A DNA stretch of 64,000 nucleotides from Chryseobacterium sp. W4I1 (GTDB lineage: Bacteria > Bacteroidota > Bacteroidia > Flavobacteriales > Weeksellaceae): positions 2,232,001 through 2,296,000 of the forward strand of contig NZ_JAUSXQ010000001.1 in the NCBI RefSeq assembly GCF_030816115.1. Reading direction: 5' to 3'. Made by a program: the position numbers and the translations under genes. The stretch's first letter is position 1. Each line of letters begins with the position of its first letter. A model generated the notes under the pieces. It was not told the DNA's origin and did no database searches. It saw only the letters and a list, made by a program, of their open reading frames with translations. Shown piece after piece: positions 39,306 through 50,648 of this stretch.

Positions 39306-39379
39306 GGCCTCGTGGCGCAACTGAATAGCGCATCTGATTACGGCTCAGAAGGTTACAGGTTTGAATCCTGTCGAGGTCA
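39306..39379 (+). tRNA. tRNA-Arg (anticodon ACG)
   Basis: 74 nt folding as a full cloverleaf: acceptor GGCCTCG/CGAGGTC (one G-U) with discriminator A at 39379; D arm GCGC...GCGC; anticodon stem TCTGA/TCAGA with loop TTACGGC, giving anticodon ACG (read as ICG); T arm ACAGG-TTTGAAT-CCTGT. CCA is not encoded. A terminator follows. This is the left neighbour of the stress block, and tRNA-Arg genes are common integration sites, though no integrase or repeated tRNA end is seen. Confidence 0.97.
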
Positions 39380-39392
39380 CACACAGCCAAAT

Positions 39393-39766: not shown

Positions 39767-39833
39767 TTCACCGACTCAATTTGCCCATTCACCGAAAAAG
39801 TCATCATTTTTTTAAGATTCATTCTGAACTTTA
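39767..39833 (+). promoter_or_regulatory. Direct-repeat regulatory site and promoter box of dps (proposed LytTR site 1)
   Basis: TTCACCGA at 39767-39774 and again at 39788-39795 (start-to-start 21 bp, two helical turns), a 30-bp spacer, then GAACTTTA (39826-39833) in the -7 position. The ATG is 82 bp beyond the second repeat. The layout repeats at 44742 and 47773. No TTG -33 is present, as expected for an activator-dependent promoter. Confidence 0.75.
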
Positions 39834-39877
39834 CATCAGAAAAAGAGCAATACCGCTCTTACTTAAATCTTAAAATT

Positions 39878-40354
39878 ATGAAAACAAACATCGGACTTAC
39901 AGAGCAAAACACAGAAGCTGTTGCAGAACAATTGGCGAAATTATTAGCTGACGAAACTGTACTTTACATAAAAACCAGAAATGCCCATTGGAACGTGACT
40001 GGCGATAATTTCCACGCAAACCATATTTTTTTTGAAGAACAGTACAAACAGTTGGACGAGTTGATTGATAGCGTTGCAGAACGTCTAAGAAAAATCGGAC
40101 ATTACGCACCTGCCACAATGAAAATCTATCTTGAATTGACGCACCTTACCGAATACAGCGACAGAACCAATGACGGATTAGGCTTTATGAAAGATTTACT
40201 AAAAGACCACGAAAGCATCATCGATTTTCTAAGAGGAAACGTAACACCTTTCGCTGAAAAATACAAAGATTACGGTTCTAGCGACTTCATCACTGGCCTG
40301 ATAGAAACGCACGAAGAAATGGCCTGGATGATTCGTTCTTACTTCAGAAATTAA
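39878..40354 (+). CDS. dps: Dps-family ferroxidase/DNA-protecting protein
   Basis: 158-aa ferritin-like protein that forms a 12-mer storing iron and detoxifying peroxide. Ferroxidase ligands are visible: KTRNAHWNVTGDNFHANHIFFEEQYKQLDELIDSVAERLRKIG, quoted here as NAHWNVTG (His), HIFFEEQYKQLDELID (Asp/Glu) and ERLRKIGHYAPATM. The start was chosen at MKTNIGLTE (39878): it gives the usual length, and upstream frame would run through the regulatory site. It leads the stress block; the LytTR regulator gene follows 54 nt later. Confidence 0.95.
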   Translation: MKTNIGLTEQNTEAVAEQLAKLLADETVLYIKTRNAHWNVTGDNFHANHIFFEEQYKQLDELIDSVAERLRKIGHYAPATMKIYLELTHLTEYSDRTNDGLGFMKDLLKDHESIIDFLRGNVTPFAEKYKDYGSSDFITGLIETHEEMAWMIRSYFRN

Positions 40355-40376
40355 AGAAAATAAGAAAAGGAATAAT

Positions 40377-40384
40377 TATATTTG
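40377..40384 (+). promoter_or_regulatory. -7 element ahead of the response-regulator gene
   Basis: TATATTTG, 24 nt upstream of the ATG, with no clear -33. It would allow the regulator to be expressed independently of dps. Confidence 0.5.
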
Positions 40385-40408
40385 TGTCAACCATAATAAA
40401 CTATCTCT

Positions 40409-41104
40409 ATGAAAGCCTTGATTGTTGATGATAACGATATCGCGAGAACCACGCTCGCACATTTGGCAAAACAAGTCCCGAATTTGACGATTGTCAACGA
40501 ATATTCCAACGCGATTGAAGCTTACAATCATTTGCAGAACAATCAGGTGGATTTGATATTTCTCGATATCGAAATGCCGGAAATGACGGGAATCGAACTC
40601 ACCAAAAACCTTGCAGGAAAAGATATCATCATCATTTTTACGTCTTCAAATAAGGATTACGCACTCGAAGCTTTCGAACTGAATATCGCAGATTACATCC
40701 TGAAACCCGTAATGCCTGCAAGATTTTTACAGGCGGTAAGCAAAGCACAATCGATTTTGGAAAGCAGAAAAGAAGATGTTGAAGTGACCAAAGATGAGTT
40801 CCTTTTCGTCAGAGATTCCAATATCACAAGGCGTTTGAGGCTCGACGATATTTTTTATGCAGAGGCAATGGGCGATTACGTGAAGTTTTACACAAGGGAA
40901 AAAATGTTTGCCATCCACGGCAAGATGAAAACGGCGGAAGAACGTCTCCCGAAAGACCATTTTATCAGAGTTCATCGCTCTTACATCGTTTCGGTTGGTA
41001 AGATAGACACCCTTCAGGACGGCGGAATTATGATAAACGGAAAATTCATTCCCGTTGCTGATGCGTACAGAAGAGCGCTCAACACCAGAATGAATGTTTT
41101 TTAG
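40409..41104 (+). CDS. LytTR-family response regulator
   Basis: 231-aa DNA-binding regulator. REC domain: LIVDDNDIARTTL, phosphoacceptor Asp53 in DLIFLDIEMPEMTG, IIIIFTSSNKDYALEAFELNIADYILKP (conserved T/S and K). LytTR domain (about 130-231): LFVRDSNITRRLRLDDIFYAEAMGDYVKFYT, then LPKDHFIRVHRSYIVSVGKID and FIPVADAYRRAL, the hallmarks of the family. LytTR proteins bind pairs of short direct repeats about 21 bp apart, exactly the arrangement found at three promoters here. It lies between dps and a hybrid histidine kinase, its presumed phosphodonor system. Confidence 0.95.
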   Translation: MKALIVDDNDIARTTLAHLAKQVPNLTIVNEYSNAIEAYNHLQNNQVDLIFLDIEMPEMTGIELTKNLAGKDIIIIFTSSNKDYALEAFELNIADYILKPVMPARFLQAVSKAQSILESRKEDVEVTKDEFLFVRDSNITRRLRLDDIFYAEAMGDYVKFYTREKMFAIHGKMKTAEERLPKDHFIRVHRSYIVSVGKIDTLQDGGIMINGKFIPVADAYRRALNTRMNVF

Positions 41105-41126
41105 AATTAGCCAGATTTATTAATTA

Positions 41127-41254
41127 TTTATTTGGGCAGCTTTATCCGCCTTCCGCTCCCAATCTTTTTTGCAGACGATTTCAGTTTTAAATGGAAATTA
41201 ATTCAAAGCAAAAAAGGATTTCCGCTCAAGTCGGGCTGCAGATTCAGTGTATAA
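41127..41254. repeat. Palindromic intergenic element, copy 1
   Basis: One end (41127-41155, TTTATTTGGGCAGC and TATCCGCCTTCCG) and the other (about 41223-41254, CTCAAGTCGGGCTGCAGATT) recur in inverted orientation at 50741-50878. An inner stem CTTTTTTGC/GCAAAAAAG is present. The interior differs from copy 2. Confidence 0.75.
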
Positions 41255-41280
41255 GAAGTATTATCATAAAACAGTGTTTT

Positions 41281-41324
41281 GTCATTCCGTAGGAATCTCA
41301 ACAGTTAGATTTCTACGAGATGAC
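41281..41324. repeat. Short palindromic intergenic element
   Basis: Arms 41281-41298 (GTCATTCCGTAGGAATCT) and 41307-41324 (AGATTTCTACGAGATGAC) pair with few mismatches. A related half-copy is at 44263-44296. Confidence 0.65.
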
Positions 41325-41355
41325 AAACTATATGTTATAAAGCACATATTCATTT

Positions 41356-43569
41356 ATGAAAAAAATATCCTCAGTAATGGGAAACAGACGGTTCAGCTAT
41401 TTCATCATCCTCACATTTATTGCGGGTTCTCTCCTATTGATAGCGGTTCAAATCAATTCGGCTAAAAATACCAAAGAACTTATTAAAAATAACAACAGAC
41501 TTCTGAACGAGTTGCGTTCAAGTAATCATTTACGTGAAATCGACCGTGATATTCTCGGCGTGGAAAGCAGAATCAGAGCTTCCATAGCAACCAATGACAC
41601 CACTCATCTTGAAGGAATCGACCAGAAAATTAATCAGATAGAAAATTTTCTAGATTCGCTTTCCAAAGACAATTCAGATGGCGTAGAAGAAAAGCTGATT
41701 CACAGATTGAGCGTTCTTGCGATGGAAAAGAAAACAACGAAGGATAAATTATTGCTTCGTTACCACACCCTTGGAAACATGGACGACAACACTTCCATTG
41801 CCAATCCAAGAGCCCGAAAAATTTCAAACGAAATCACTTTTATCACTGCAAAAATTTACGAAAGCCGAAAACTTCATATGGTTGACCTCAGCAGAGAGAC
41901 TGAAGCGATGGGACAAAAAGCAAGGTTGTATGATATTTCCTTATTGATTCTTTTGATTTTAAGTGGTTCAATTGTCGGTTATCACATTCTACGTCAGTTC
42001 AAACGTCAGCGATTGTTGATTCAGGAATTGGATGTTGCGGAGAAAAAAGCATCGGTTGCCGCACAGACCAAAGAAAATTTCCTAGCCAATATGAGCCACG
42101 AAATCAGAACTCCTTTGAGCGGAATTCTGGGCTTTACAAACCTTTTACAAAAAAGACCTTTGGATGAAACCTCTAAAGAATTTGTCTCATCAATTCAACG
42201 TTCAGGAGAGAATCTGATGGCAATTGTTAATGATATTCTCGATTTATCAAAAATTGAAGCCGGTATGATGCGCATTACCAAAGGCATATTCAGCATCAAT
42301 GGATTAGCTAATTCCGTTGAAACATTTTTTATGGAACGCGCCAAAGAAAAAGGATTGACGATTTCCAGCAAAATCGACACCTCAATTCCTGATACTTTGA
42401 ATGGCGATGCCACAAGACTGACTCAGATTCTGGTCAACCTCATCGGAAATGCCATCAAATTTACGCATCAGGGAACTATCAATATCGAAATTTACAATAA
42501 ACAACAGACCGAAAACGAAATCATTGTCGGCTTTAAAGTTTCTGACACGGGGATCGGAATCGATAAAGAAAAACTCATTGAAGTCTTTGAAAGATTCAAT
42601 CAGGGCGAAGATTCAACGACACGAAATTACGGAGGAACCGGACTTGGTTTATCGATTGTGAAAAGCCTGATTCAGTTGCAGAACGGCGATATCGAAGTGA
42701 TAAGCGAACAGGGAAAAGGGACCACTTTCCATTTTTATATTCCTTACACAATTGCGAAAGAACAGCTTAATGTAATTCCTAAAATTGATATAGATTATTT
42801 TAAAGATAAAACAAATACACCTTTGAGAGTGCTAATCGTGGATGATAACGCTATCAATCAAAATCTAATGAAGCACCTTCTCTCACAATGGAACGTCGAT
42901 TTTGATACTGCAAACAATGGTCTGGAAGCAGTAGAATTTCTCAGAAACAACGACTGTGATTTGGTTTTAATGGACATCCAAATGCCGCAAATGGACGGTT
43001 ACGTGGCCACACAAACAATCCGTGAAGAACTTAAACTGAACACGCCAATCATCGCAATGACCGCACACGCTTTGGCGGGCGAACGCGAAAGATGTATGAG
43101 TCGTGGAATGAACGAATACATTTCAAAACCTATCATAGAGGAAGAATTATTCAAACTAATTTCAAATTTCGGACTGAAAGAAAACGTAAAAACGGGAACG
43201 AAAACCGAAGAAATCGTTTCTAATTACGAGTTCATCGACCTTACTTATTTGAAGTCTATCAGCAATGGCGACAAAAATTTTGAAAGAACCGTGACGCAGC
43301 AGTTTTTAGATAATGTCCCAACTCATTTGCAGGAACTGAAACTGGCTTATGAAAACAAAGATTTCGAATTACTAAAATTGAAAGCACACGATTTGAAATC
43401 GAGTGTTGCGATAATGGGTTTGCTTCCTCTATTAGAGGAAAAATTAGATATTTTAGAACTAACAACCGAAGAAAATCCGGCATCAGAAAAAACTTTGGAA
43501 GAACTAGAAGATGTTTTGCTGAAATCTTTCTTTGAAACAAAATTATTTATGCAAGCCATCGATCATTAA
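41356..43569 (+). CDS. Hybrid sensor histidine kinase (HK-REC-HPt)
   Basis: 737-aa inner-membrane sensor. Two transmembrane helices (about 14-32 and 193-212) enclose a 160-residue helical extracytoplasmic sensor. HisKA with phospho-His248 (NMSHEIRTPLSGILGF); HATPase with LVNLIGNAIKFT, DTGIGI and GGTGLGLSI (about 426); REC with LIVDDNAINQN, Asp540 in LVLMDIQMPQMDGY and MTAHAL; terminal HPt with His678 in KAHDLKSSVAIMG. All four phosphorelay residues are intact, so it can pass phosphate His-Asp-His to a separate regulator, here presumably the LytTR protein 251 bp upstream. Confidence 0.96.
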   Translation: MKKISSVMGNRRFSYFIILTFIAGSLLLIAVQINSAKNTKELIKNNNRLLNELRSSNHLREIDRDILGVESRIRASIATNDTTHLEGIDQKINQIENFLDSLSKDNSDGVEEKLIHRLSVLAMEKKTTKDKLLLRYHTLGNMDDNTSIANPRARKISNEITFITAKIYESRKLHMVDLSRETEAMGQKARLYDISLLILLILSGSIVGYHILRQFKRQRLLIQELDVAEKKASVAAQTKENFLANMSHEIRTPLSGILGFTNLLQKRPLDETSKEFVSSIQRSGENLMAIVNDILDLSKIEAGMMRITKGIFSINGLANSVETFFMERAKEKGLTISSKIDTSIPDTLNGDATRLTQILVNLIGNAIKFTHQGTINIEIYNKQQTENEIIVGFKVSDTGIGIDKEKLIEVFERFNQGEDSTTRNYGGTGLGLSIVKSLIQLQNGDIEVISEQGKGTTFHFYIPYTIAKEQLNVIPKIDIDYFKDKTNTPLRVLIVDDNAINQNLMKHLLSQWNVDFDTANNGLEAVEFLRNNDCDLVLMDIQMPQMDGYVATQTIREELKLNTPIIAMTAHALAGERERCMSRGMNEYISKPIIEEELFKLISNFGLKENVKTGTKTEEIVSNYEFIDLTYLKSISNGDKNFERTVTQQFLDNVPTHLQELKLAYENKDFELLKLKAHDLKSSVAIMGLLPLLEEKLDILELTTEENPASEKTLEELEDVLLKSFFETKLFMQAIDH

Positions 43570-43591
43570 ATTATTAAAAACCAATCTCATT

Positions 43592-44143
43592 ATGGAAACT
43601 CAAGGCGCATCTGTGGTTATCACACATCACGTTTTGGCCGGAAAACAAATCGAATATGAAAAATGGCTGGAAGAAATTCTACCCGTTTCCAAAAGTGCCA
43701 AAGGTTTTATCGACTGGCAAATCATTCGTCCGATTCCCGATCTGACGTTTGTTTACACGGTGATTATCCGCTTTGACACGATTGAAAATCTCAGAACCTG
43801 GATGGAATCTGATACCAGAAGAAAATTGATTGATAAAGCCCATCCATTATTCACAAAAGAAGATAATTACGAAATCAAATCCGGACTGGATTTTTTGTTC
43901 TATGGCGAAAAAACAGACACCAAAGTTCCGGTTCGATGGAAACAATATCTGACAACTTGGTCTGCCATTTTTCCTTTGTCACTCTTGATGCAATTGTTAT
44001 TATTGCCCTCTTTAAGATTAATGAATATTCCTGCCAATGGTTATTTTGATACGTTAGTGAGTACCGGCTGTCTGGTTTTTTTGGTGATTTACGTGGTGAT
44101 GCCGAATTACACGAAGCTGATTAGAAAATGGCTTTATAAGTAA
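43592..44143 (+). CDS. ABM-domain (antibiotic biosynthesis monooxygenase-like) membrane protein
   Basis: 183-aa protein with an N-terminal dimeric alpha/beta-barrel ABM domain (ASVVITHHVLAGKQIEYEKWLEEILPVSKSAKGFIDWQIIRP, in parts; LRTWMESDTRRKLIDKAHPLF) and a C-terminal two-helix membrane anchor (TTWSAIFPLSLLMQLLLLPSL, LVSTGCLVFLVIYVVMPNY), as in COG3224 proteins. The start was chosen at METQGASV (43592); the longer frame from 43532 overlaps the kinase gene. It follows the kinase by 22 nt and probably shares its transcript. Enzymatic activity is unproven. Confidence 0.88.
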   Translation: METQGASVVITHHVLAGKQIEYEKWLEEILPVSKSAKGFIDWQIIRPIPDLTFVYTVIIRFDTIENLRTWMESDTRRKLIDKAHPLFTKEDNYEIKSGLDFLFYGEKTDTKVPVRWKQYLTTWSAIFPLSLLMQLLLLPSLRLMNIPANGYFDTLVSTGCLVFLVIYVVMPNYTKLIRKWLYK

Positions 44144-44262
44144 TTGAATATTCATCTAAATCTATTTAAAATCATTGGAATTTTCCAGTGATTTTTTTGT
44201 GCCATTTTTTGTAATTCAAAAAGAATCTAAACTGCCTAGATTCACTTCATCGAACCACTTCA

Positions 44263-44296
44263 TTAGGTTTCCTACGTAATGACAAACTGTGTGTGT
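44263..44296. repeat. Half-copy of the 41281 palindromic element
   Basis: The segment containing TTTCCTACGTAATGACAAAC matches the right arm and outflank of 41281-41324 (TTTCTACGAGATGACAAAC). The left arm is not recognisable. Confidence 0.5.
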
Positions 44297-44320
44297 TGTT
44301 TTCGGTAAGTCAAGATTATT

Positions 44321-44693
44321 TTGCAGTTTGTTTCCCGCAACTTGTTTGAGACTAATGTACTTTGCAGTTCGTTTCCTGCAACTTGTTTGAAACAAAATGC
44401 ATTTTACATTTATTTAAAATAACCTTGTTTGGAACCAAATAACATTGCAGACTGTTTACCGCAAACCGTTTGAAACAAAATGCATTTTACATTTATTTAA
44501 AATAACCTTGTTTGGAACCAAATAACATTGCAGATCGTTTCCCACAAACAGTTTGAAACAAAATGCATTTTACATTTATTTAAAATAACCTTGTTTGGAA
44601 CCAAATAACATTGCAGATCGTTTCCCACAAACAGTTTGAAACAAAATGCATTTTACATTTGTTTAAAACAAACCTGTTTGGAATAAACAACTT
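44321..44693. repeat. 83-bp tandem repeat array (about 4.5 copies)
   Basis: Unit starts TTGCAG at 44362, 44445, 44528 and 44611, exactly 83 bp apart; an extra 41-bp half-unit begins at 44321. The last three units are nearly identical. Each 83-bp unit looks like two diverged halves of about 41 bp sharing TTTG-AAC-AAAT positions. The array lies in the 708-bp gap between the ABM gene and the SRPBCC-like gene, ending 49 bp before regulatory site 2. Confidence 0.92.
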
Positions 44694-44741
44694 TTTATTT
44701 TACATAAATAGTCTACGGAATATGACCATCTTATTTTCTCA

Positions 44742-44808
44742 TTCAACGACACTTTCCGCCTGTTCATCGAACACCAATTGATTTTGAAATTTGTTGAATG
44801 TAGCTTTA
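44742..44808 (+). promoter_or_regulatory. Direct-repeat regulatory site and promoter box (proposed LytTR site 2)
   Basis: TTCAACGA (44742-44749) and TTCATCGA (44763-44770), start-to-start 21 bp; 30 bp later TAGCTTTA (44801-44808); ATG 81 bp beyond the second repeat. A TTG at 44778-44780 may serve as -33. Confidence 0.72.
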
Positions 44809-44851
44809 CACCATCAAATTAACATATACAAAAACTTAAACTTTAAACATT

Positions 44852-45409
44852 ATGGAAATTATTCAAACACCAGAAAACGCATTATCTCACTCTACCGTTA
44901 CAGCGATTATCAATGCCCCAATTGAAAAAGTTAACATCGCAGATTGGTTATTAAATCTTCCCGATGCAGAATATCAGAGATGTTCTACTCAGCACATTGG
45001 AGCAGCCATTTCGACTACGTATGATGGCGAACCGGTTTCTTTAAACGTCGAAACAATTGGAGATGCTTTGATGGTTCAGCATTATGTTGCGGTAGAGCAC
45101 CGTCCTGATTACTGCAGAATGTTATCCATCTCAGATTCTATTACCAAAGGTGGCCGTACCAAAGTTCAGGTTTTATGGGAACTGAAAGCCACTAAAATTG
45201 ATGATAACACGACCTTGTACACCAACGAAATTCACGCAACAGCCACTCCCGAAATGTTTGAATACCTAAAAGAACACAACGTGAATCTTGCTGATGCCGC
45301 AGCGTCCAGACAAGCCGCTTCCGATGCACACAATCACGAAGAAACGCCCAACTTTGCAAAAAGTATCGAAAACAAAGCGTTGACCGGAAAATACAATCAA
45401 CCTTTCTAA
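44852..45409 (+). CDS. SRPBCC-like protein of the stress block
   Basis: 185-aa soluble protein. The segment STVTAIINAPIEKVNIADWLLNLPD resembles the start of SRPBCC/START domains, and the following strands (MVQHYVAVEHRPDYCRMLSIS, TKVQVLWELKATKIDDNTTLYTNEI) with a final helix fit that fold. The family call is moderate. The tail (ASDAHNHEETPNFAKSIENKALTG) is hydrophilic. It heads a unit with the lipocalin-like, quinone oxidoreductase and DUF1275 genes, behind its own direct-repeat promoter, so it is probably induced together with dps and the bicupin. Confidence 0.6.
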   Translation: MEIIQTPENALSHSTVTAIINAPIEKVNIADWLLNLPDAEYQRCSTQHIGAAISTTYDGEPVSLNVETIGDALMVQHYVAVEHRPDYCRMLSISDSITKGGRTKVQVLWELKATKIDDNTTLYTNEIHATATPEMFEYLKEHNVNLADAAASRQAASDAHNHEETPNFAKSIENKALTGKYNQPF

Positions 45410-45459
45410 TTCAAAAAACATAATGGGCGTATTTCGGTACGCTCATTTCATTTAAAGTT

Positions 45460-45903
45460 ATGGAAACACTTTTTGAAAAACTTATAGGAACCTGGACTTT
45501 GGTAGAACTCATCGAAGTTCCTGTCAACGGCGGCGAAATTACGCATCCGATGGGCGAAAATCCGAAAGGACTGATTATTTACAATCCTGATGGTTTTATG
45601 TCGGCACAAATTATGGATACGCATCGGGAAAACTTTCATCAGGAACACTGGACTAATGCCACGCCGGAAGAATATACACAGGAAGGCTCAACCTATCTTG
45701 CGTATTCGGGGCCGTTCAAAACGAATGATGAAAAACAGTTGGTGAGCCACACGATGTACATCTCGCTTTTCCCTAATTGGACAGGGCAAACGCAGAATAG
45801 AAATGTTATCTTTAAAGATGATTTTCTGCATCTAGAAAGTGAGAAACCGTTCACCAGCAATTTCAGATTAGTGACTCACAAACTGACCTGGAAGAGAGTT
45901 TGA
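45460..45903 (+). CDS. Lipocalin-like domain protein
   Basis: 147-aa protein of the bacterial lipocalin-like family (PF13924 type): LIGTWTLVELIEVPVNGGE (GxW motif), NPKGLIIYNPDGFMSAQIM, YLAYSGPFKTNDEKQLVSHTMYISLFPNWTGQTQNR, split by loops. Some relatives accompany oxidoreductases in small-molecule metabolism. Its ligand is unknown. It is 50 nt after the SRPBCC-like gene and 30 nt before the quinone oxidoreductase gene. Confidence 0.82.
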   Translation: METLFEKLIGTWTLVELIEVPVNGGEITHPMGENPKGLIIYNPDGFMSAQIMDTHRENFHQEHWTNATPEEYTQEGSTYLAYSGPFKTNDEKQLVSHTMYISLFPNWTGQTQNRNVIFKDDFLHLESEKPFTSNFRLVTHKLTWKRV

Positions 45904-45933
45904 AAATGAATGTGATACTAAAATTTAAAAAAA

Positions 45934-46902
45934 ATGAAAGCCATCGTTATTACAAAATCTGGAGGTCCTGAAGTATTGAAATTACAGGATTACCCTACTC
46001 CCGAAATATCCGGAGACGAAGTTTTAATCGAAGTGAAAGCCGCCGGACTCAACCGTTCCGATGTTTTTCAGCGTGAAGGTAATTATCCTGCACCGGAAGG
46101 AGCTTCCGCCGAAATTCCAGGATTGGAAGTTGCCGGAACTATTGTAAAATGCGGTCCTGATGTCGTAGATTTTACCGTTGGCGACAGAGTTTGTGCACTT
46201 CTCGCAGGTGGCGGCTATGCTGAATATGTCGCTGTGAGAGAAGGTCACTGTTTACCGATTCCGGAAGATTTAAGTTTTGCTGAGGCGGCAAGCTTACCGG
46301 AAACTGTCTTTACAGTTTGGTCTAATGTTTTTCAGAGAGGAAATCTTCAACCGGGAGAAACCCTTTTGCTCCATGGCGGAAACAGCGGAATTGGAATCAC
46401 AGGCATTCAGATTGCTCACGTATTGGGTTCAAAAGTAATTGTCACAGTTGGTTCTGATGAAAAAGGCCGGAAATGTCTTGAACTTGGCGCTGATTCTTAC
46501 ATTAATTATAAGACCCAGAATTTTGAAACCGAACTTCAAAATGAAGGTGTCGACGTCATTCTGGATATGATTGGCGGTGATTATCTGGCCAAAAACATCA
46601 ACATTCTAAAACCTGAAGGCAGATTGGTTCACATCAATGCGGTAAGTGGCAGTCACGTAGATTTAGACATTTGGAAAGTAATGACAAAGCGTTTGACTGT
46701 TACAGGAAGTACTTTGAGAAGTCGGGAATATGAGTTCAAAAAACAATTGGCCAAAGAGATTCAGAAAAATGTCTGGCCTTTGATTGAATCTAAAAAGTTC
46801 AGACCTGTCATTTATAAAACATTTCCTTTCTCGGAAGCTGCGGAAGCTCACCGACTGCTTGAAGACGGTTCGCATACAGGCAAGATTATTCTTGTGAGAT
46901 AG
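45934..46902 (+). CDS. NAD(P)H:quinone oxidoreductase (PIG3/QOR-like MDR family)
   Basis: 322-aa zinc-free medium-chain reductase: AGLNRSDVFQREGNYPAPEGASAEIPGLEVAG (in parts; typical of PIG3/TP53I3-like), CALLAGGGYAEYVAV, and the Rossmann stretch LLLHGGNSGIGITGIQIAHVLGSKVIVTVGSDEKG with the substrate loop LGADSYINYKTQNF. No structural-zinc cysteine cluster. Reduces quinones or enals using NADPH, matching the oxidative-stress theme of its neighbours. Confidence 0.93.
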   Translation: MKAIVITKSGGPEVLKLQDYPTPEISGDEVLIEVKAAGLNRSDVFQREGNYPAPEGASAEIPGLEVAGTIVKCGPDVVDFTVGDRVCALLAGGGYAEYVAVREGHCLPIPEDLSFAEAASLPETVFTVWSNVFQRGNLQPGETLLLHGGNSGIGITGIQIAHVLGSKVIVTVGSDEKGRKCLELGADSYINYKTQNFETELQNEGVDVILDMIGGDYLAKNINILKPEGRLVHINAVSGSHVDLDIWKVMTKRLTVTGSTLRSREYEFKKQLAKEIQKNVWPLIESKKFRPVIYKTFPFSEAAEAHRLLEDGSHTGKIILVR

Positions 46903-46925
46903 CAAAAATTTATAACTGATAACCA

Positions 46926-47603
46926 ATGAATAGAGATGCGGTCTTCTATTCGTCCCTGATTATGGCTTTCAGTGCAGGTTTTGTCGATACAAGCACCTTC
47001 ACGATTGCAGATGGATTATTCTCTGCCCATATTACGGGAAATTTTGTGGTTTTTGCGTACAAATTATCAAACCATCCTCAATTGCATGATTTTATCAATC
47101 TTGCCAGCTTTCCCGTTTTCATAATGGCGGTTATCTTAACGAGAAAAATGGATAGCCTTTATAAAAAGGAAAAAGGAATATTTGCATCTATTGGTATATT
47201 TTTGATTGTTGCAGGCTGTATCGCTTTTTTATTAAAACAAAATCATATTGCAACAGGATTTGTGTATCATTCTATGCTGATGCTGATTGTCTTTTCGATG
47301 GGAATTCAAAATACGGTAACCCGTTTGTACGCCAATTCCGCTTTTGGCCCGACGACGGTAATGACGGGCAATGTGACCAAAGCCATTCTTGATTTTTTCA
47401 ATTACATCTCTACACAACATACCCTTGAAAAATTAGTAGAACTAAGGAAATCATTGGTACTTCTGACAGGTTTTTTGATTGGATGTATCTTTGGCGCTTT
47501 GATTTCTGCTCGTTTCGGATTGGTTTCAATGTTGATTCCGGGTATTTTGATTTCTGCTTACTACACGGTATCTACAAGAAAAGAATCTTTATCCTTGCAA
47601 TAA
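46926..47603 (+). CDS. DUF1275 (YoaK) membrane protein, copy 1
   Basis: 225-aa six-helix membrane protein of the DUF1275/YoaK family: SLIMAFSAGFVDTSTFTIADGLFSAHITGNFVVFAYKL (in parts; the G-D...F.AH.TGN motif is diagnostic), MGIQNTVTRLYANSAFGPTTVMTGNVTKAILDF. Function unknown; transport has been suggested for the family. It is 23 nt after the oxidoreductase gene. A second, divergent family member is at 48959-49660. Confidence 0.88.
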   Translation: MNRDAVFYSSLIMAFSAGFVDTSTFTIADGLFSAHITGNFVVFAYKLSNHPQLHDFINLASFPVFIMAVILTRKMDSLYKKEKGIFASIGIFLIVAGCIAFLLKQNHIATGFVYHSMLMLIVFSMGIQNTVTRLYANSAFGPTTVMTGNVTKAILDFFNYISTQHTLEKLVELRKSLVLLTGFLIGCIFGALISARFGLVSMLIPGILISAYYTVSTRKESLSLQ

Positions 47604-47627
47604 ATTCTTTTATCATTTAAATAATCG

Positions 47628-47658
47628 TCCTTCCCAAGTTAATTGAGAAGGATTTTTT
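47628..47658 (+). terminator. Terminator after DUF1275 copy 1
   Basis: Arms TCCTTCCCAA (47628-47637) and TTGAGAAGGA (47643-47652) pair at 9 of 10 positions, followed by T's. It ends the unit starting at the 44742 promoter. Confidence 0.75.
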
Positions 47659-47772
47659 ATTAATAAAATGGACGTCGCTAAGAATCTTTCAATTGATAAA
47701 ATTCGAATTGAAAGTCTTTTATCTCTCATCTATTTTCTTTACTCTAAAAACATCAACTACTCCTTTCAAATT

Positions 47773-47839
47773 CCCACCGACTCATTTTGCCCATTCACCG
47801 AAAAGCACTTCAAAATCCTTTGATTCCGAGGTAGCTTTA
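47773..47839 (+). promoter_or_regulatory. Direct-repeat regulatory site and promoter box of the bicupin gene (proposed LytTR site 3)
   Basis: CCCACCGA (47773-47780) and TTCACCGA (47794-47801), start-to-start 21 bp; 30 bp later TAGCTTTA (47832-47839); ATG 85 bp beyond the second repeat. The stretch between and including the repeats is nearly identical to the dps site, including an internal TTTGCCCA. Confidence 0.75.
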
Positions 47840-47886
47840 CAGTAGAAATAAAGACAAACTATCATTCATCACAAAAACTTATCATT

Positions 47887-48933
47887 ATGAATACTGCATC
47901 ATTAAGCTTCAAATACGAATTAGAGAAAAAAGAACCAAGAACTAACGATGGTGGAACGACAAGAGGTGCTTCTGTAAAAGATTTCCCTGCTTCTATAGGA
48001 ATTGCGGGCGTTTCTATGAGACTGCAACCGGGAAGTATGAGAGAATTGCACTGGCACGCCAACGCCGCTGAATGGGCATATGTAATTTCGGGAACGGTTC
48101 GTACAACAATTATTCATCCTGACGGACACAGCTACACAGACAATTTTGAGCCGGGCGACGTTTGGTATTTTCCAAAAGGTTATGGACACTCGATTCAGGC
48201 GACAGGAACGGAAGAATGCCATTTCATTTTGATTTTTGATAACGGTAATTTTTCTGAAGACCATACGTTCAGCGTGACAGATTTTGTTTCTTCAGTACCA
48301 CCTGAAATCGTTGCGCAAAATTTGGGTTTAACTTTAGAAGAAGTGGCTGCTTTGCCGCAGAAAGAAGCCTATTTCGCAGCGGGAATTGTTCCGGATGAAA
48401 TGTCATTCACAGCCGAGGCTCGTCCGGATGAATCCGATATCGAATTAACGAGTTTCCACCGTTATCCTTTGCATTCTCAACAACCGAGAATCGTTCCGGG
48501 CGGAGGTTTACAGAGATTGGTAACGAGCAAAGAATTCCCTATCAGCAGTACAATGTCGGGTTCTATTTTAGAATTGCAGCCTGGCGCTTTAAGAGAAATG
48601 CACTGGCATCCGAATGCTGACGAATGGCAATATTTTATTTCAGGACAGGCCGAAATGTCGGTTTTCCTTGCAGAATCTACTTGCGTTACAGAACAATTCA
48701 GTGCAGGAGATGTCGGTTATGTTCCAATGGGAGCCGGACATTACATCAAAAATACAGGCGATACGGTTTGTAGAATTCTGATTGGCTTCAACAGCGGAAA
48801 ATATGAATCGATTGATTTGAGCGAATGGCTGGCGGGAAATCCAAAAGATGTTGTTGTAACCAATTTTGGTTTGAAAGAAGGCGAAATCGAAAAATTCCCG
48901 ACTGAGAAAGTCTTCATTCAGCCTCAGAAATAA
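47887..48933 (+). CDS. Bicupin (oxalate decarboxylase-like)
   Basis: 348-aa protein with two cupin domains, each with the metal-binding set: RELHWHANAAEWAYVISG...GDVWYFPKGYGHSIQ (about 55-105) and REMHWHPNADEWQYFISG...GDVGYVPMGAGHYIKN (about 238-285). This pairing and the HWHxNAxEW motif are typical of OxdC-like manganese bicupins that decarboxylate or oxidise oxalate. The lid region that sets decarboxylase versus oxidase activity does not show the SENST signature, so the reaction is uncertain. No signal peptide. It heads the third unit with the direct-repeat promoter. Confidence 0.9.
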   Translation: MNTASLSFKYELEKKEPRTNDGGTTRGASVKDFPASIGIAGVSMRLQPGSMRELHWHANAAEWAYVISGTVRTTIIHPDGHSYTDNFEPGDVWYFPKGYGHSIQATGTEECHFILIFDNGNFSEDHTFSVTDFVSSVPPEIVAQNLGLTLEEVAALPQKEAYFAAGIVPDEMSFTAEARPDESDIELTSFHRYPLHSQQPRIVPGGGLQRLVTSKEFPISSTMSGSILELQPGALREMHWHPNADEWQYFISGQAEMSVFLAESTCVTEQFSAGDVGYVPMGAGHYIKNTGDTVCRILIGFNSGKYESIDLSEWLAGNPKDVVVTNFGLKEGEIEKFPTEKVFIQPQK

Positions 48934-48958: not shown

Positions 48959-49660
48959 ATGGATAATTCTGTCATCAAAACAAACATTTCCGCTTCATCT
49001 GATTCGATTAAGATGCAAGAGAGATTGGCGATACTTTTAGCTTTAATTGCAGGTTATATTGATGCAACAGGACTGATTCAATGGAAAACGTACGTCTCTT
49101 TTATGAGTGGAAATACCACGTCATTAGGAGCGGCAATTTCAACCGATAAATCTGGAATTATAATTACATCAGTCACAGTTATCCTTTGCTTTTTAATAGG
49201 AATTTACACCGGAACCTGCCTGTTATTATGGAAGCGAATTAAGAACCAAATATTAACATTTTATATAGTTTCCGGAATTCTCATTTTCTATTCAATTATT
49301 GCTTATTTTTATGATATCAATAATTTGTTATCCATTGTAATTGTCGGATTTTCAATGGGATTGATGAACACGATTGTGACTTCTGTAGGAAACCAAAAAG
49401 TGAATACGGATTTCGTGACGGGAACTCTGAACAGTCTGGCAAGGAACAGCGCAATGCTGACGATGACAGATGATAAAATGGAAAAAGAAGAGTATAAATC
49501 CAACGCTATTCATCTTTTGCTGCTGTGGATTGGCTTTTTATCAGGTGCATTTGTCGCCCCTTTCCTACTCGATTATTTTGGAAAATGGACTTTGATGATT
49601 CCTGCATTATTACTAATGATTTGCGGAATTTTGATTTCAAAAAATAACACTAAAAACTAA
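48959..49660 (+). CDS. DUF1275 (YoaK) membrane protein, copy 2
   Basis: 233-aa membrane protein of the same family as 46926-47603: LALIAGYIDATGLIQWKTYVSFMSGNTTSLGAAIS (in parts), GFSMGLMNTIVTSVGNQKVNTDFVTGTLNSLARN. The D in GYIDATG and the SGNTT motif match the family. It is 25 nt after the bicupin gene and 4 nt before the peroxiredoxin gene, so co-transcribed. The two copies differ substantially, so this is an old paralogy rather than a recent duplication. Confidence 0.88.
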   Translation: MDNSVIKTNISASSDSIKMQERLAILLALIAGYIDATGLIQWKTYVSFMSGNTTSLGAAISTDKSGIIITSVTVILCFLIGIYTGTCLLLWKRIKNQILTFYIVSGILIFYSIIAYFYDINNLLSIVIVGFSMGLMNTIVTSVGNQKVNTDFVTGTLNSLARNSAMLTMTDDKMEKEEYKSNAIHLLLLWIGFLSGAFVAPFLLDYFGKWTLMIPALLLMICGILISKNNTKN

Positions 49661-49664
49661 TATT

Positions 49665-50126
49665 ATGTTACAGAAAAACGATGTTGCTCCAGATTTCACT
49701 TTGTACGCAACGCCAGACCAGAAAATTACACTTTCAGAATTCAAAGGAAAGAATGTCATCCTCGCTTTTTATCCAGCGGATTGGAGTCCGGTTTGCAGCG
49801 ACCAGATGGCTTTGTATAATGAAACTTTGAAGTTTTTCAAGAAATACGATGCAGAACTTTTCGGAATTTCCGTAGACAGCAAATGGTGTCATCTTGCATT
49901 TTCGCAGTCAAGAAATTTACATTTTCCTTTGTTAGCCGATTTTGAAGCTAAAGGAGAAATCGCAAAACAGTACGGCGTTTATGATGATGAAGAAGGTGAA
50001 TGTAAACGGGCATTATTCGTCATCAATAAAGAAGGCATCATCGAATGGAGTTATCTGTCACCAACGGCAATTAATCCTGGCGCAGACGGAATTTTAGACG
50101 CTTTAGAAAACCTTAACACAAAATAA
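49665..50126 (+). CDS. Peroxiredoxin (AhpC/TSA family, AhpE/BCP-like)
   Basis: 153-aa thiol peroxidase. Peroxidatic Cys44 in FYPADWSPVCSDQM; the canonical Thr three residues before Cys is Ser here. Resolving-type cysteines are possible at SKWCHLAF and GECKRALF. The terminal SPTAINPGADGILDAL fits the class. Reduces peroxides or hypohalous products, consistent with dps and the DsbA-like protein next to it (3 nt downstream). Confidence 0.92.
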   Translation: MLQKNDVAPDFTLYATPDQKITLSEFKGKNVILAFYPADWSPVCSDQMALYNETLKFFKKYDAELFGISVDSKWCHLAFSQSRNLHFPLLADFEAKGEIAKQYGVYDDEEGECKRALFVINKEGIIEWSYLSPTAINPGADGILDALENLNTK

Positions 50127-50129
50127 ATT

Positions 50130-50648
50130 ATGTCACTAAAACCAAACGTCAGCCAAGCTGACCACTCACAAGGCAACTTAGAAGCCGAACTTGTTATCGT
50201 AGAATATGGCGACTATCAATGTCCATACTGTGGCGCTGCTTATCCTATTCTGAAAGAATTGATGAAAGAATATGGAAGTCAAATTAAATTTGTTTTCAGG
50301 AACTTTCCATTGTCTGAGATGCATCAATACGCAAGACCGGCGGCCATCGCAGCAGAAGCAGCCAATTTTCAGGGGAAATTCTGGGAAATGCACGATGCGA
50401 TTTATGAAAATCAGAGAGATTTGAATGAAAACTTGCTGATGAAGCTGGCGGAACAATTAAAACTGAACATTCCTCAATTTGAAAAGGATTTGGAAAGTAC
50501 TGAACTGGCTAATAAAGTAGATTCAGATTTTGAAAGCGGAATTATGAGCGGCGTGAACGGAACACCTTCATTCTTCGTGAATGGAAAGAAATATGATGGT
50601 GGCGCGGAAGATTTGGTTGAGCTTTTGAGGGAGAATACTGAGAGTTAA
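50130..50648 (+). CDS. DsbA-family thioredoxin-fold protein
   Basis: 172-aa protein with CPYC at residues 31-34 (EYGDYQCPYCGAAYP), an inserted helical domain, and the cis-Pro region GVNGTPSFFVNGKKYDGG. No signal peptide, so likely cytoplasmic, as in the DsbA-like proteins fused to or near NhaA in other bacteria. It is 3 nt after the peroxiredoxin gene and may regenerate it. Last gene of the bicupin unit. Confidence 0.9.
   Translation: MSLKPNVSQADHSQGNLEAELVIVEYGDYQCPYCGAAYPILKELMKEYGSQIKFVFRNFPLSEMHQYARPAAIAAEAANFQGKFWEMHDAIYENQRDLNENLLMKLAEQLKLNIPQFEKDLESTELANKVDSDFESGIMSGVNGTPSFFVNGKKYDGGAEDLVELLRENTES

What the first reader, a model, noticed from the sequence alone, without database searches (positions are those of the whole stretch)
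39767..47886. Three promoters with identical direct-repeat architecture: a candidate LytTR regulon
Upstream of dps, the SRPBCC-like gene and the bicupin gene I find pairs of TTCAnCGA-type octamers (TTCACCGA/TTCACCGA; TTCAACGA/TTCATCGA; CCCACCGA/TTCACCGA). In all three the two starts are exactly 21 bp apart, the gap to a (T/G)AnCTTTA box is exactly 30 bp, and the distance to the ATG is 82, 81 and 85 bp. The -7-like boxes depart from TAnnTTTG in the last base, and a consistent -33 is missing, as for activator-dependent promoters. A LytTR regulator, a family known to bind direct repeats two helical turns apart, is encoded between the first two sites. I infer that it controls the whole block. The motif sequence itself is not one I know.
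Basis: partly seen in the sequence, partly recalled or inferred. Interest (0 to 1): 0.88.

Follow-up and report, generated by a model that had tools for sequence, protein, structure and literature searches.

The report
LytTR stress regulon with rigid promoters
Three neighbouring gene blocks for stress protection carry the same 30-letter control sequence at a fixed distance from their start signals, and related bacteria show that this sequence goes with the switch protein encoded beside it, so a stress-response circuit can be proposed from DNA alone and put to a direct test.

Summary
Around 45 regulator orthologues (65-98% identity, six genera) it occurs 122 times. It heads the gene run holding the regulator in 45 of 45 loci, re-ordered ones included; the box is at the same offset in 121 of 122. 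Between genera the element is 79% identical, its flanks 30-44%. Of 320 family genomes, all 65 with the regulator have the element; 5 of 255 without have one match each, none with the box in place. Only dps, the LytTR regulator and a hybrid kinase are in all 45 islands. Best reading: the regulator binds the repeats and activates these promoters, its own included. Binding is untested, and the island is inherited as a unit, so co-occurrence alone is not proof; a perfect site 510 kb away in one genome helps. LytTR direct repeats are a known kind; the near-invariant GCC between the repeats and the near-rigid spacing are the new part.

The parts
39767..39796 (+). 30-bp operator-like element upstream of dps (repeats at 39767-39774 and 39788-39795, GCC at 39783-39785)
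   Evidence: PWM 45.3; the window was not in the training set
39826..39833 (+). -7-like box GAACTTTA, 30 bp after repeat 2
   Evidence: best offset 0
39878..40354 (+). dps (ferritin-like), first gene of the run that holds the regulator
   Evidence: PF00210 3.2e-23; family in 45 of 45 islands
40409..41104 (+). LytTR response regulator (receiver + LytTR domain), proposed binder of the elements
   Evidence: PF00072 3e-22, PF04397 1.2e-18
41356..43569 (+). hybrid histidine kinase HisKA-HATPase-REC-Hpt, likely partner
   Evidence: family in 45 of 45 islands
43592..44143 (+). 183-aa protein, no Pfam or NCBIfam match (working label ABM-like is mine); family in 39 of 45 islands
44742..44771 (+). 30-bp operator-like element upstream of the SRPBCC-like gene (repeats at 44742-44749 and 44763-44770, GCC at 44758-44760)
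   Evidence: PWM 41.7
44801..44808 (+). -7-like box TAGCTTTA
   Evidence: best offset 0
44852..45409 (+). SRPBCC-like protein (no Pfam match; some homologues are named SRPBCC or polyketide cyclase by their sources)
45460..45903 (+). Lipocalin_5-domain protein, same gene run
   Evidence: PF13924 3.3e-39
45934..46902 (+). zinc-type dehydrogenase family protein (quinone-reductase-like is my label), same gene run
   Evidence: PF13602, PF00107, PF08240
46926..47603 (+). DUF1275 protein
   Evidence: PF06912
47773..47802 (+). 30-bp operator-like element upstream of the bicupin (repeats at 47773-47780 and 47794-47801, GCC at 47789-47791)
   Evidence: PWM 48.6
47832..47839 (+). -7-like box TAGCTTTA
   Evidence: best offset 0
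47887..48933 (+). bicupin, oxalate decarboxylase family
   Evidence: TIGR03404, 362 bits against a cut-off of 254.2
48959..50648 (+). rest of the bicupin gene run: DUF1275 (48959-49660), peroxiredoxin-like (49665-50126, below NCBIfam cut-offs), DsbA/thioredoxin-like (50130-50648, below cut-offs)
   Evidence: families in 32, 34 and 37 of 45 islands

Best explanation
The element is the operator of the LytTR response regulator encoded at 40409-41104. Once phosphorylated, probably by the neighbouring hybrid kinase (inferred), two regulator molecules bind the two TTCA(A/C)CGA repeats, which lie two helical turns apart on one face of the DNA, with the conserved GCC block one turn between them. By analogy with mapped sigma-A promoters of Flavobacterium psychrophilum (-7 box at -12 to -5), the repeats sit at about -71/-64 and -50/-43. 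A bound regulator would there stand in for the missing -33 contact and recruit RNA polymerase to a -7 box that carries A where the consensus has G. Regulated: dps-regulator-kinase (positive feedback), the SRPBCC-like gene run and the bicupin-DUF1275-peroxiredoxin-DsbA run, a protection set for redox or electrophile stress (function inferred from the gene families). Shown: sequence, spacing, conservation, linkage to this regulator. Inferred: binding, activation, phosphotransfer, signal.
For: Element in 45 of 45 loci with a regulator >=65% identical and in 0 of 34 loci with 35-64%, several of these short. Box at offset 0 in 121 of 122 sites when offsets -15 to +15 were tried, while the distance to the first ORF varies (87-176 bp in 116 sites, 224-748 in 6). 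Between genera: element 79% identical, upstream 30%, gap 40%, box 69%, leader 44% (149 pairs from a hand-listed subset of dps promoters). Family: 65 of 65 regulator genomes have the element, 5 of 255 others have one match each (Fisher 1.6e-62, not corrected for relatedness), none of the five with the box in place. Phylum sample: all 5 genomes with a regulator >=81% identical have it, three of them also in the family set. Only dps, regulator and kinase are in all 45 islands. A site heads the gene run holding the regulator in 45 of 45, also in the Sphingobacterium loci L062, L063, L066, where that run starts with the SRPBCC-like gene. Sites away from the island: G057, 510 kb off, 0 mismatches, box at 0; G175, an SRPBCC-like gene on another contig, box at 0. 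The regulator has the LytTR domain and the FhRhHRS signature (signature from PMC4227749, passages); LytTR sites are typically repeats of 9-11 nt with 11-13 nt between (PMC4847170, passages).
Against: No binding, expression or phosphorylation data. Regulator, dps and bicupin orthologues are inherited as one island, so co-occurrence partly reflects linkage. The weight matrices were trained on 97 sites of L031-L069, with the box column fixed, which favours offset 0; out of sample are chiefly L070, L071, L073, L075, L076, L080, the window and L181. Of five sites on other contigs or far away, three have the box at +1 or -1 (L148, L150, L151), and the contig of L151 carries a piece of the bicupin, so it may belong to the island. 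A regulator of 54% identity (G002) keeps a site while regulators of 59 and 64% (L074, L072) have none in the 20 kb held, so identity alone does not predict the motif. The repeat core is 8 bp, shorter than the usual 9-11.
Confidence: 0.86

Rival explanations
1. The element is bound by a different protein, for example another LytTR regulator of the genome, and the neighbouring regulator is a passenger.
For: No binding data. The first look for the regulator gave 56 candidates in this genome, 9 scored, 1 with E<=1e-70, so other receiver or LytTR proteins probably exist.
Against: Every one of 65 regulator genomes has the element and 250 of 255 others have none; no other regulator is in all 45 islands; repeat length and period fit LytTR.
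Confidence: 0.07
2. The regulator binds the element but represses, or mainly represses, these promoters.
For: A LytTR repressor on three repeats is known (CoxC, PMC11347149, passages read).
Against: CoxC's repeats overlap -35; here they end at about -43. The -7 box is off consensus at a fully conserved base (A66 1.00) and no -33 is shared (best column near -33 has 0.44 bits), as expected for promoters that need an activator.
Confidence: 0.05
3. The similarity is leftover from promoter duplication, or the element serves movement of the island, not transcription.
For: The dps and bicupin elements in the window agree in 27 of 30 bases; no flanking gene family outside the island is in more than 8 of 45 loci, so the island seems to move.
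Against: Between genera the element stays at 79% while flanks drop to 30-44%. It reads towards a gene with the box at fixed distance, and turns with inverted gene runs (L042, L066). It marks starts of gene runs, not island ends.
Confidence: 0.02

Closest known systems
AgrA of Staphylococcus aureus (LytTR response regulator; PMC4227749, passages read)
   Same: Receiver (recalled) + LytTR domain; dimer on direct repeats, the promoter-proximal ones centred about -60, upstream of promoters with suboptimal spacing, which it activates (that P2 drives agrA's own operon is recalled).
   Different: Different repeat sequence (recalled); Firmicute promoter; no conserved block between the repeats is described in what I read; our LytTR profile finds AgrA only weakly (3bs1, E 2e-4).
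YpdB of E. coli (PMC4847170, passages read)
   Same: LytTR response regulator; direct repeat GGCATTTCAT, 11 nt between the copies in the printed oligonucleotide, so period 21 as here.
   Different: One target gene; LytS/LytTR-type pair; other repeat sequence.
RcoM / CoxC LytTR regulators (PMC11347149, passages read)
   Same: 8-bp direct repeats TTCNNGCA with 12-13 bp between, close to TTCANCGA with 13 here; three repeats (30 of 122 sites here have a third upstream copy at -21 with <=2 mismatches).
   Different: Not two-component systems: sensor and LytTR domain in one protein (RcoM partly recalled); CoxC is a repressor.
LytTR Regulatory Systems incl. Bacteroides LRS-like operons (PMC6193735, passages read)
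   Same: Direct repeats just upstream of the core promoter, positive autoregulation; the Bacteroides examples are the only predicted LytTR sites in this phylum that my searches turned up.
   Different: LRS pair a regulator with an inhibitory membrane protein; here receiver domain plus hybrid kinase. The Bacteroides repeats are 11 bp with 11 bp between, another sequence, and an upstream promoter box 19 bp from TATCTTTG.

Membership tests
LytTR response regulators (LytR/AlgR family) | Receiver domain followed by a LytTR DNA-binding domain | tested here: met
   PF00072 residues 4-110, PF04397 residues 142-228, both above the curated cut-off
LytTR response regulators (LytR/AlgR family) | FhRhHRS signature and phospho-acceptor Asp | tested here: met
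   F185, R187, H189, R190, S191 and D53 invariant in 34 sequences; signature named in PMC4227749; D53 as acceptor is by analogy
LytTR response regulators (LytR/AlgR family) | Targets carry two direct repeats with an 11-13 bp gap (about two helical turns) upstream of the promoter | tested here: met
   8-bp repeats (usual 9-11), 13-bp gap, period 21, 122 sites
LytTR response regulators (LytR/AlgR family) | Protein binds those repeats | not testable with these tools
   Needs EMSA or footprint
LytTR response regulators (LytR/AlgR family) | LytTR fold by structure comparison | tested here: inconclusive
   the 50 listed rows cover only the receiver domain; the fold was not searched with the LytTR domain alone
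LytS/LytTR-type two-component systems (YpdAB, BtsSR) | LytS-type kinase and equivalog score for BtsR | tested here: not met
   kinase is HisKA+HATPase+REC+Hpt; BtsR model 117.7 bits against a cut-off of 246
LytTR Regulatory Systems (LRS) | LytTR regulator paired with an inhibitory membrane protein | tested here: not met
   regulator has a receiver domain, constant partner is a hybrid kinase
Bacteroidota sigma-A promoter | -7 box TAnnTTTG with an upstream -33 element | tested here: not met
   box is (T/G)AnCTTTA, TTTA in 118 of 122 sites, no strongly conserved column near -33; -7 consensus and position from PMC9723704, passages

The most novel reading that the evidence does not exclude
A self-contained, horizontally spread stress regulon of Bacteroidota whose LytTR activator reads three successive helical turns (CGA, GCC, CGA, about 10.5 bp apart) instead of two separate half-sites, and takes the place of -33 recognition at a nearly fixed 30-bp distance: an operator mode not described for LytTR proteins in the papers my searches listed.
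Probability: 0.45. Interest if true: 0.65.

Novelty: new variant of a known kind. Interest (0 to 1): 0.52.

Why it matters
LytTR regulators bind sites that share no common sequence (PMC4847170, passage), which makes their targets hard to predict. Here a site logo, its promoter geometry and the regulon membership come from comparative data over six genera, in a phylum for which my searches found only one earlier prediction of LytTR sites. It gives a directly testable circuit (regulator, kinase, operator, targets), a possible inducible promoter for Flavobacterium-like bacteria, and a way to look for the signal that the island protects against.

Tried and rejected
Octamer pair alone as genome-wide marker: too loose with mismatches. 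Known RNA element: at Rfam's gathering thresholds only a tRNA in 36-52 kb. tRNA as common integration site: a tRNA-Arg lies next to the island in the window and a tRNA-Leu about 0.7 kb upstream of the first element in L064, but 30 of 34 other loci scanned (of 45) hold no tRNA. Plasmid carriage of the regulator: no match at 1e-60 in the plasmid collection. Regulators of 50-64% identity (L072, L074, L182, L183): no element above PWM 14; L183 has a weak one (12.7) between regulator and kinase. The phylum matches without regulator (G363, G504, G360) have no box; G363 lies inside an ORF. Residues 217-221 are ADAYR in the window protein, in G002 and in L183, ADSYR in L072/L074, which have no motif: suggestive only; group A itself has one exception at 219. 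Fold comparison: the 50 listed rows of VIA-align cover only the receiver domain, so the LytTR part was not tested by fold; the AlphaFold model is confident over most of it. Literature: the ten searches listed no paper on this regulon or motif; I saw listings with starts of abstracts, and passages of PMC4227749, PMC4847170, PMC10197871, PMC9723704, PMC11347149 and PMC6193735, no whole text. The library holds few subscription papers. Promoter duplication and island-end function: see rivals.
Full report
OBSERVATION. Every number in the finding is right: octamer pairs at 39767, 44742 and 47773, starts 21 bp apart, 30 bp from the second CGA to the box, 82/81/85 bp to the ATGs. The exact pair occurs only twice in the 4,621,265-bp genome, both here, and none of 300 Markov windows had two. 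With mismatches the pair alone is hardly specific: 82 matches at <=2 against 57 for the reversed control; 15 in the window at <=3 against 7.7 expected.

THE REAL MOTIF. One search collected sites in related loci by the octamers and a TTTA downstream (142 at <=2 mismatches, 110 with TTTA; base counts from those with <=1 mismatch, number not printed). The spacer, which was not selected on, is conserved too: T13 1.00, G16 0.99, C17 0.99, C18 0.99; so are A60 (1.00) and A71 (0.97) around the box; the octamers and TTTA were part of the filter. The element is YTCAMCGA-N4-TTTTGCC-YR-TTCAMCGAA. CGA, GCC and CGA follow each other at about one helical turn. As a 30-mer at <=3 mismatches it has 3 promoter sites and 1 match inside an ORF in the genome. 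In the window nothing but the three sites scores above 5 on the weight matrix, which was not trained on the window.

COMPARATIVE EVIDENCE. I treat the 45 with >=65% identity as one group: L031-L071, L073, L075, L076, L080. All 45 have at least two elements (weight-matrix score >14); the other 34 loci (35-64% identity, several of them short) have none. In total 122 elements score above 15; the box is best at offset 0 in 121 when -15 to +15 are tried. The exception (L071 10715) lies between regulator and kinase genes. 120 of 122 overlap no kept ORF of 90 aa or more. Target classes by the first downstream ORF of 90 aa or more, called automatically: dps 41, bicupin 35, SRPBCC-like 28, alpha/beta hydrolase 7 (name mine), peroxiredoxin-like 4, others 7. 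GCC is present in 122 of 122, CGA of repeat 1 in 121, of repeat 2 in 106, TTTA in 118, A71 in 119 (selected by a matrix that includes the element, so one search is the fairer figure for GCC). A third octamer at -21 is present with <=2 mismatches in 30 of 122 sites, against a mean of 3.1 at other offsets and 13 at the next best, -24. For dps promoters (38 that passed a peptide tag), ungapped identity between genera is 0.79 in the element, 0.69 in the box, 0.30 upstream, 0.40 in the gap and 0.44 in the leader (149 pairs among a hand-listed subset).

LINK TO THE REGULATOR. Of 320 genomes of the family, 70 have the 30-mer (reversed control: one match, in G240) and 65 have the regulator at E<=1e-70 (64 with 81-100% identity, G002 with 54%). 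All 65 are among the 70. The five others (G149, G162, G179, G272, G293) have one match each, without the box at the right place. In 296 genomes drawn over the phylum, the five with a regulator of >=81% have the element (three of them also in the family set), two with 50-53% do not, and three without the regulator have matches without a box. The Fisher values (1.6e-62 and 6.3e-8) ignore relatedness, and many of these genomes are the same species as the loci. Caveat: dps (84-100%) is in 64 genomes, all regulator genomes, and the bicupin (87-100%) in 59, all regulator genomes; beyond that only paralogues of <=61% and <=67% were listed. The island is thus gained and lost as a unit, which by itself would make regulator and element go together. 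Three things go beyond linkage: a perfect element with box 510 kb from the regulator in the single-contig genome G057; an SRPBCC-like gene on another contig in the draft G175 with element and box; and re-ordered or inverted gene runs that keep the element at their heads. Sites at +1/-1 offset in L148, L150 and L151 show that the spacing is not absolute.

WHO BINDS. In the 45 islands only dps, the LytTR regulator and the hybrid kinase are universal (clusters at >=45% identity of ORFs of 90 aa or more). The regulator has receiver and LytTR domains, the LytTR signature, and its LytTR profile finds the solved LytTR proteins 3d6w (7e-10), ComE 4cbv (5e-5) and AgrA 3bs1 (2e-4) (that 3d6w is a LytTR domain is recalled). 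The AlphaFold model (mean pLDDT 84.2) shows the receiver plus a mostly beta C-terminal domain. LytTR sites are described as two repeats of 9-11 nt with 11-13 nt between (PMC4847170), RcoM as TTCNNGCA repeats with 12-13 bp between (PMC11347149), AgrA's proximal repeats as centred near -60 (PMC4227749); passages read. Our 8-bp repeats with 13 bp between fit.

HOW IT PROBABLY WORKS. With the box set at -12 to -5, as mapped in F. psychrophilum (PMC9723704, passages), the repeats lie at about -71/-64 and -50/-43 and the conserved A71 falls on +1. No -33 is shared and the box has A in place of the consensus G. This is the layout of an activator that substitutes for upstream promoter contacts. The gene run holding the regulator is headed by the element in 45 of 45, so positive feedback is expected; that these runs are operons is inferred from direction and order. 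Targets (ferritin-like Dps, peroxiredoxin-like, thioredoxin/DsbA-like, zinc-dehydrogenase family, oxalate-decarboxylase-family bicupin, DUF1275) point to redox or electrophile defence; the signal is unknown. Activation, phosphotransfer and binding are inferred.

VERDICT. It is a regulon of a known kind (LytTR two-component activator on direct repeats), with an extended 30-bp operator and near-rigid promoter geometry in Bacteroidota that my paper searches did not find described.

Noticed in passing
44362-44683: 83-bp unit repeated 3.9 times (92% match) in the gap directly upstream of the SRPBCC promoter element; role unknown.
   Followed up: no
39306-39380: tRNA-Arg (acg) just upstream of the island in the window; 30 of 34 other loci scanned hold no tRNA, L064 has a tRNA-Leu about 0.7 kb upstream of its first element. 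No flanking gene family outside the island is in more than 8 of 45 loci, so the island appears to move.
   Followed up: partly
L062 7272-7321, L063 4184, L066 7240, L057 9326: Third direct repeat exactly 21 bp upstream, giving three-repeat arrays as described for RcoM/CoxC.
   Followed up: partly
L070 10716, L071 10715, L181 783: In two Dyadobacter loci and G002 a related repeat pair lies between regulator and kinase genes, without the box at the usual offset; possibly an older autoregulatory site.
   Followed up: partly
L153 (G179) 2357 and L154 (G108) 2513, both minus strand: Look-alike elements: the first downstream ORF is 441 bp away in L153 and none was found in L154; G179 lacks the regulator and its copy has no box, perhaps a decayed site; in L154 a weak box lies at -2.
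   Followed up: partly
G133:C1:1009684, G175:C9:84969: Bicupin homologues with one in-frame stop each in the match table.
   Followed up: no
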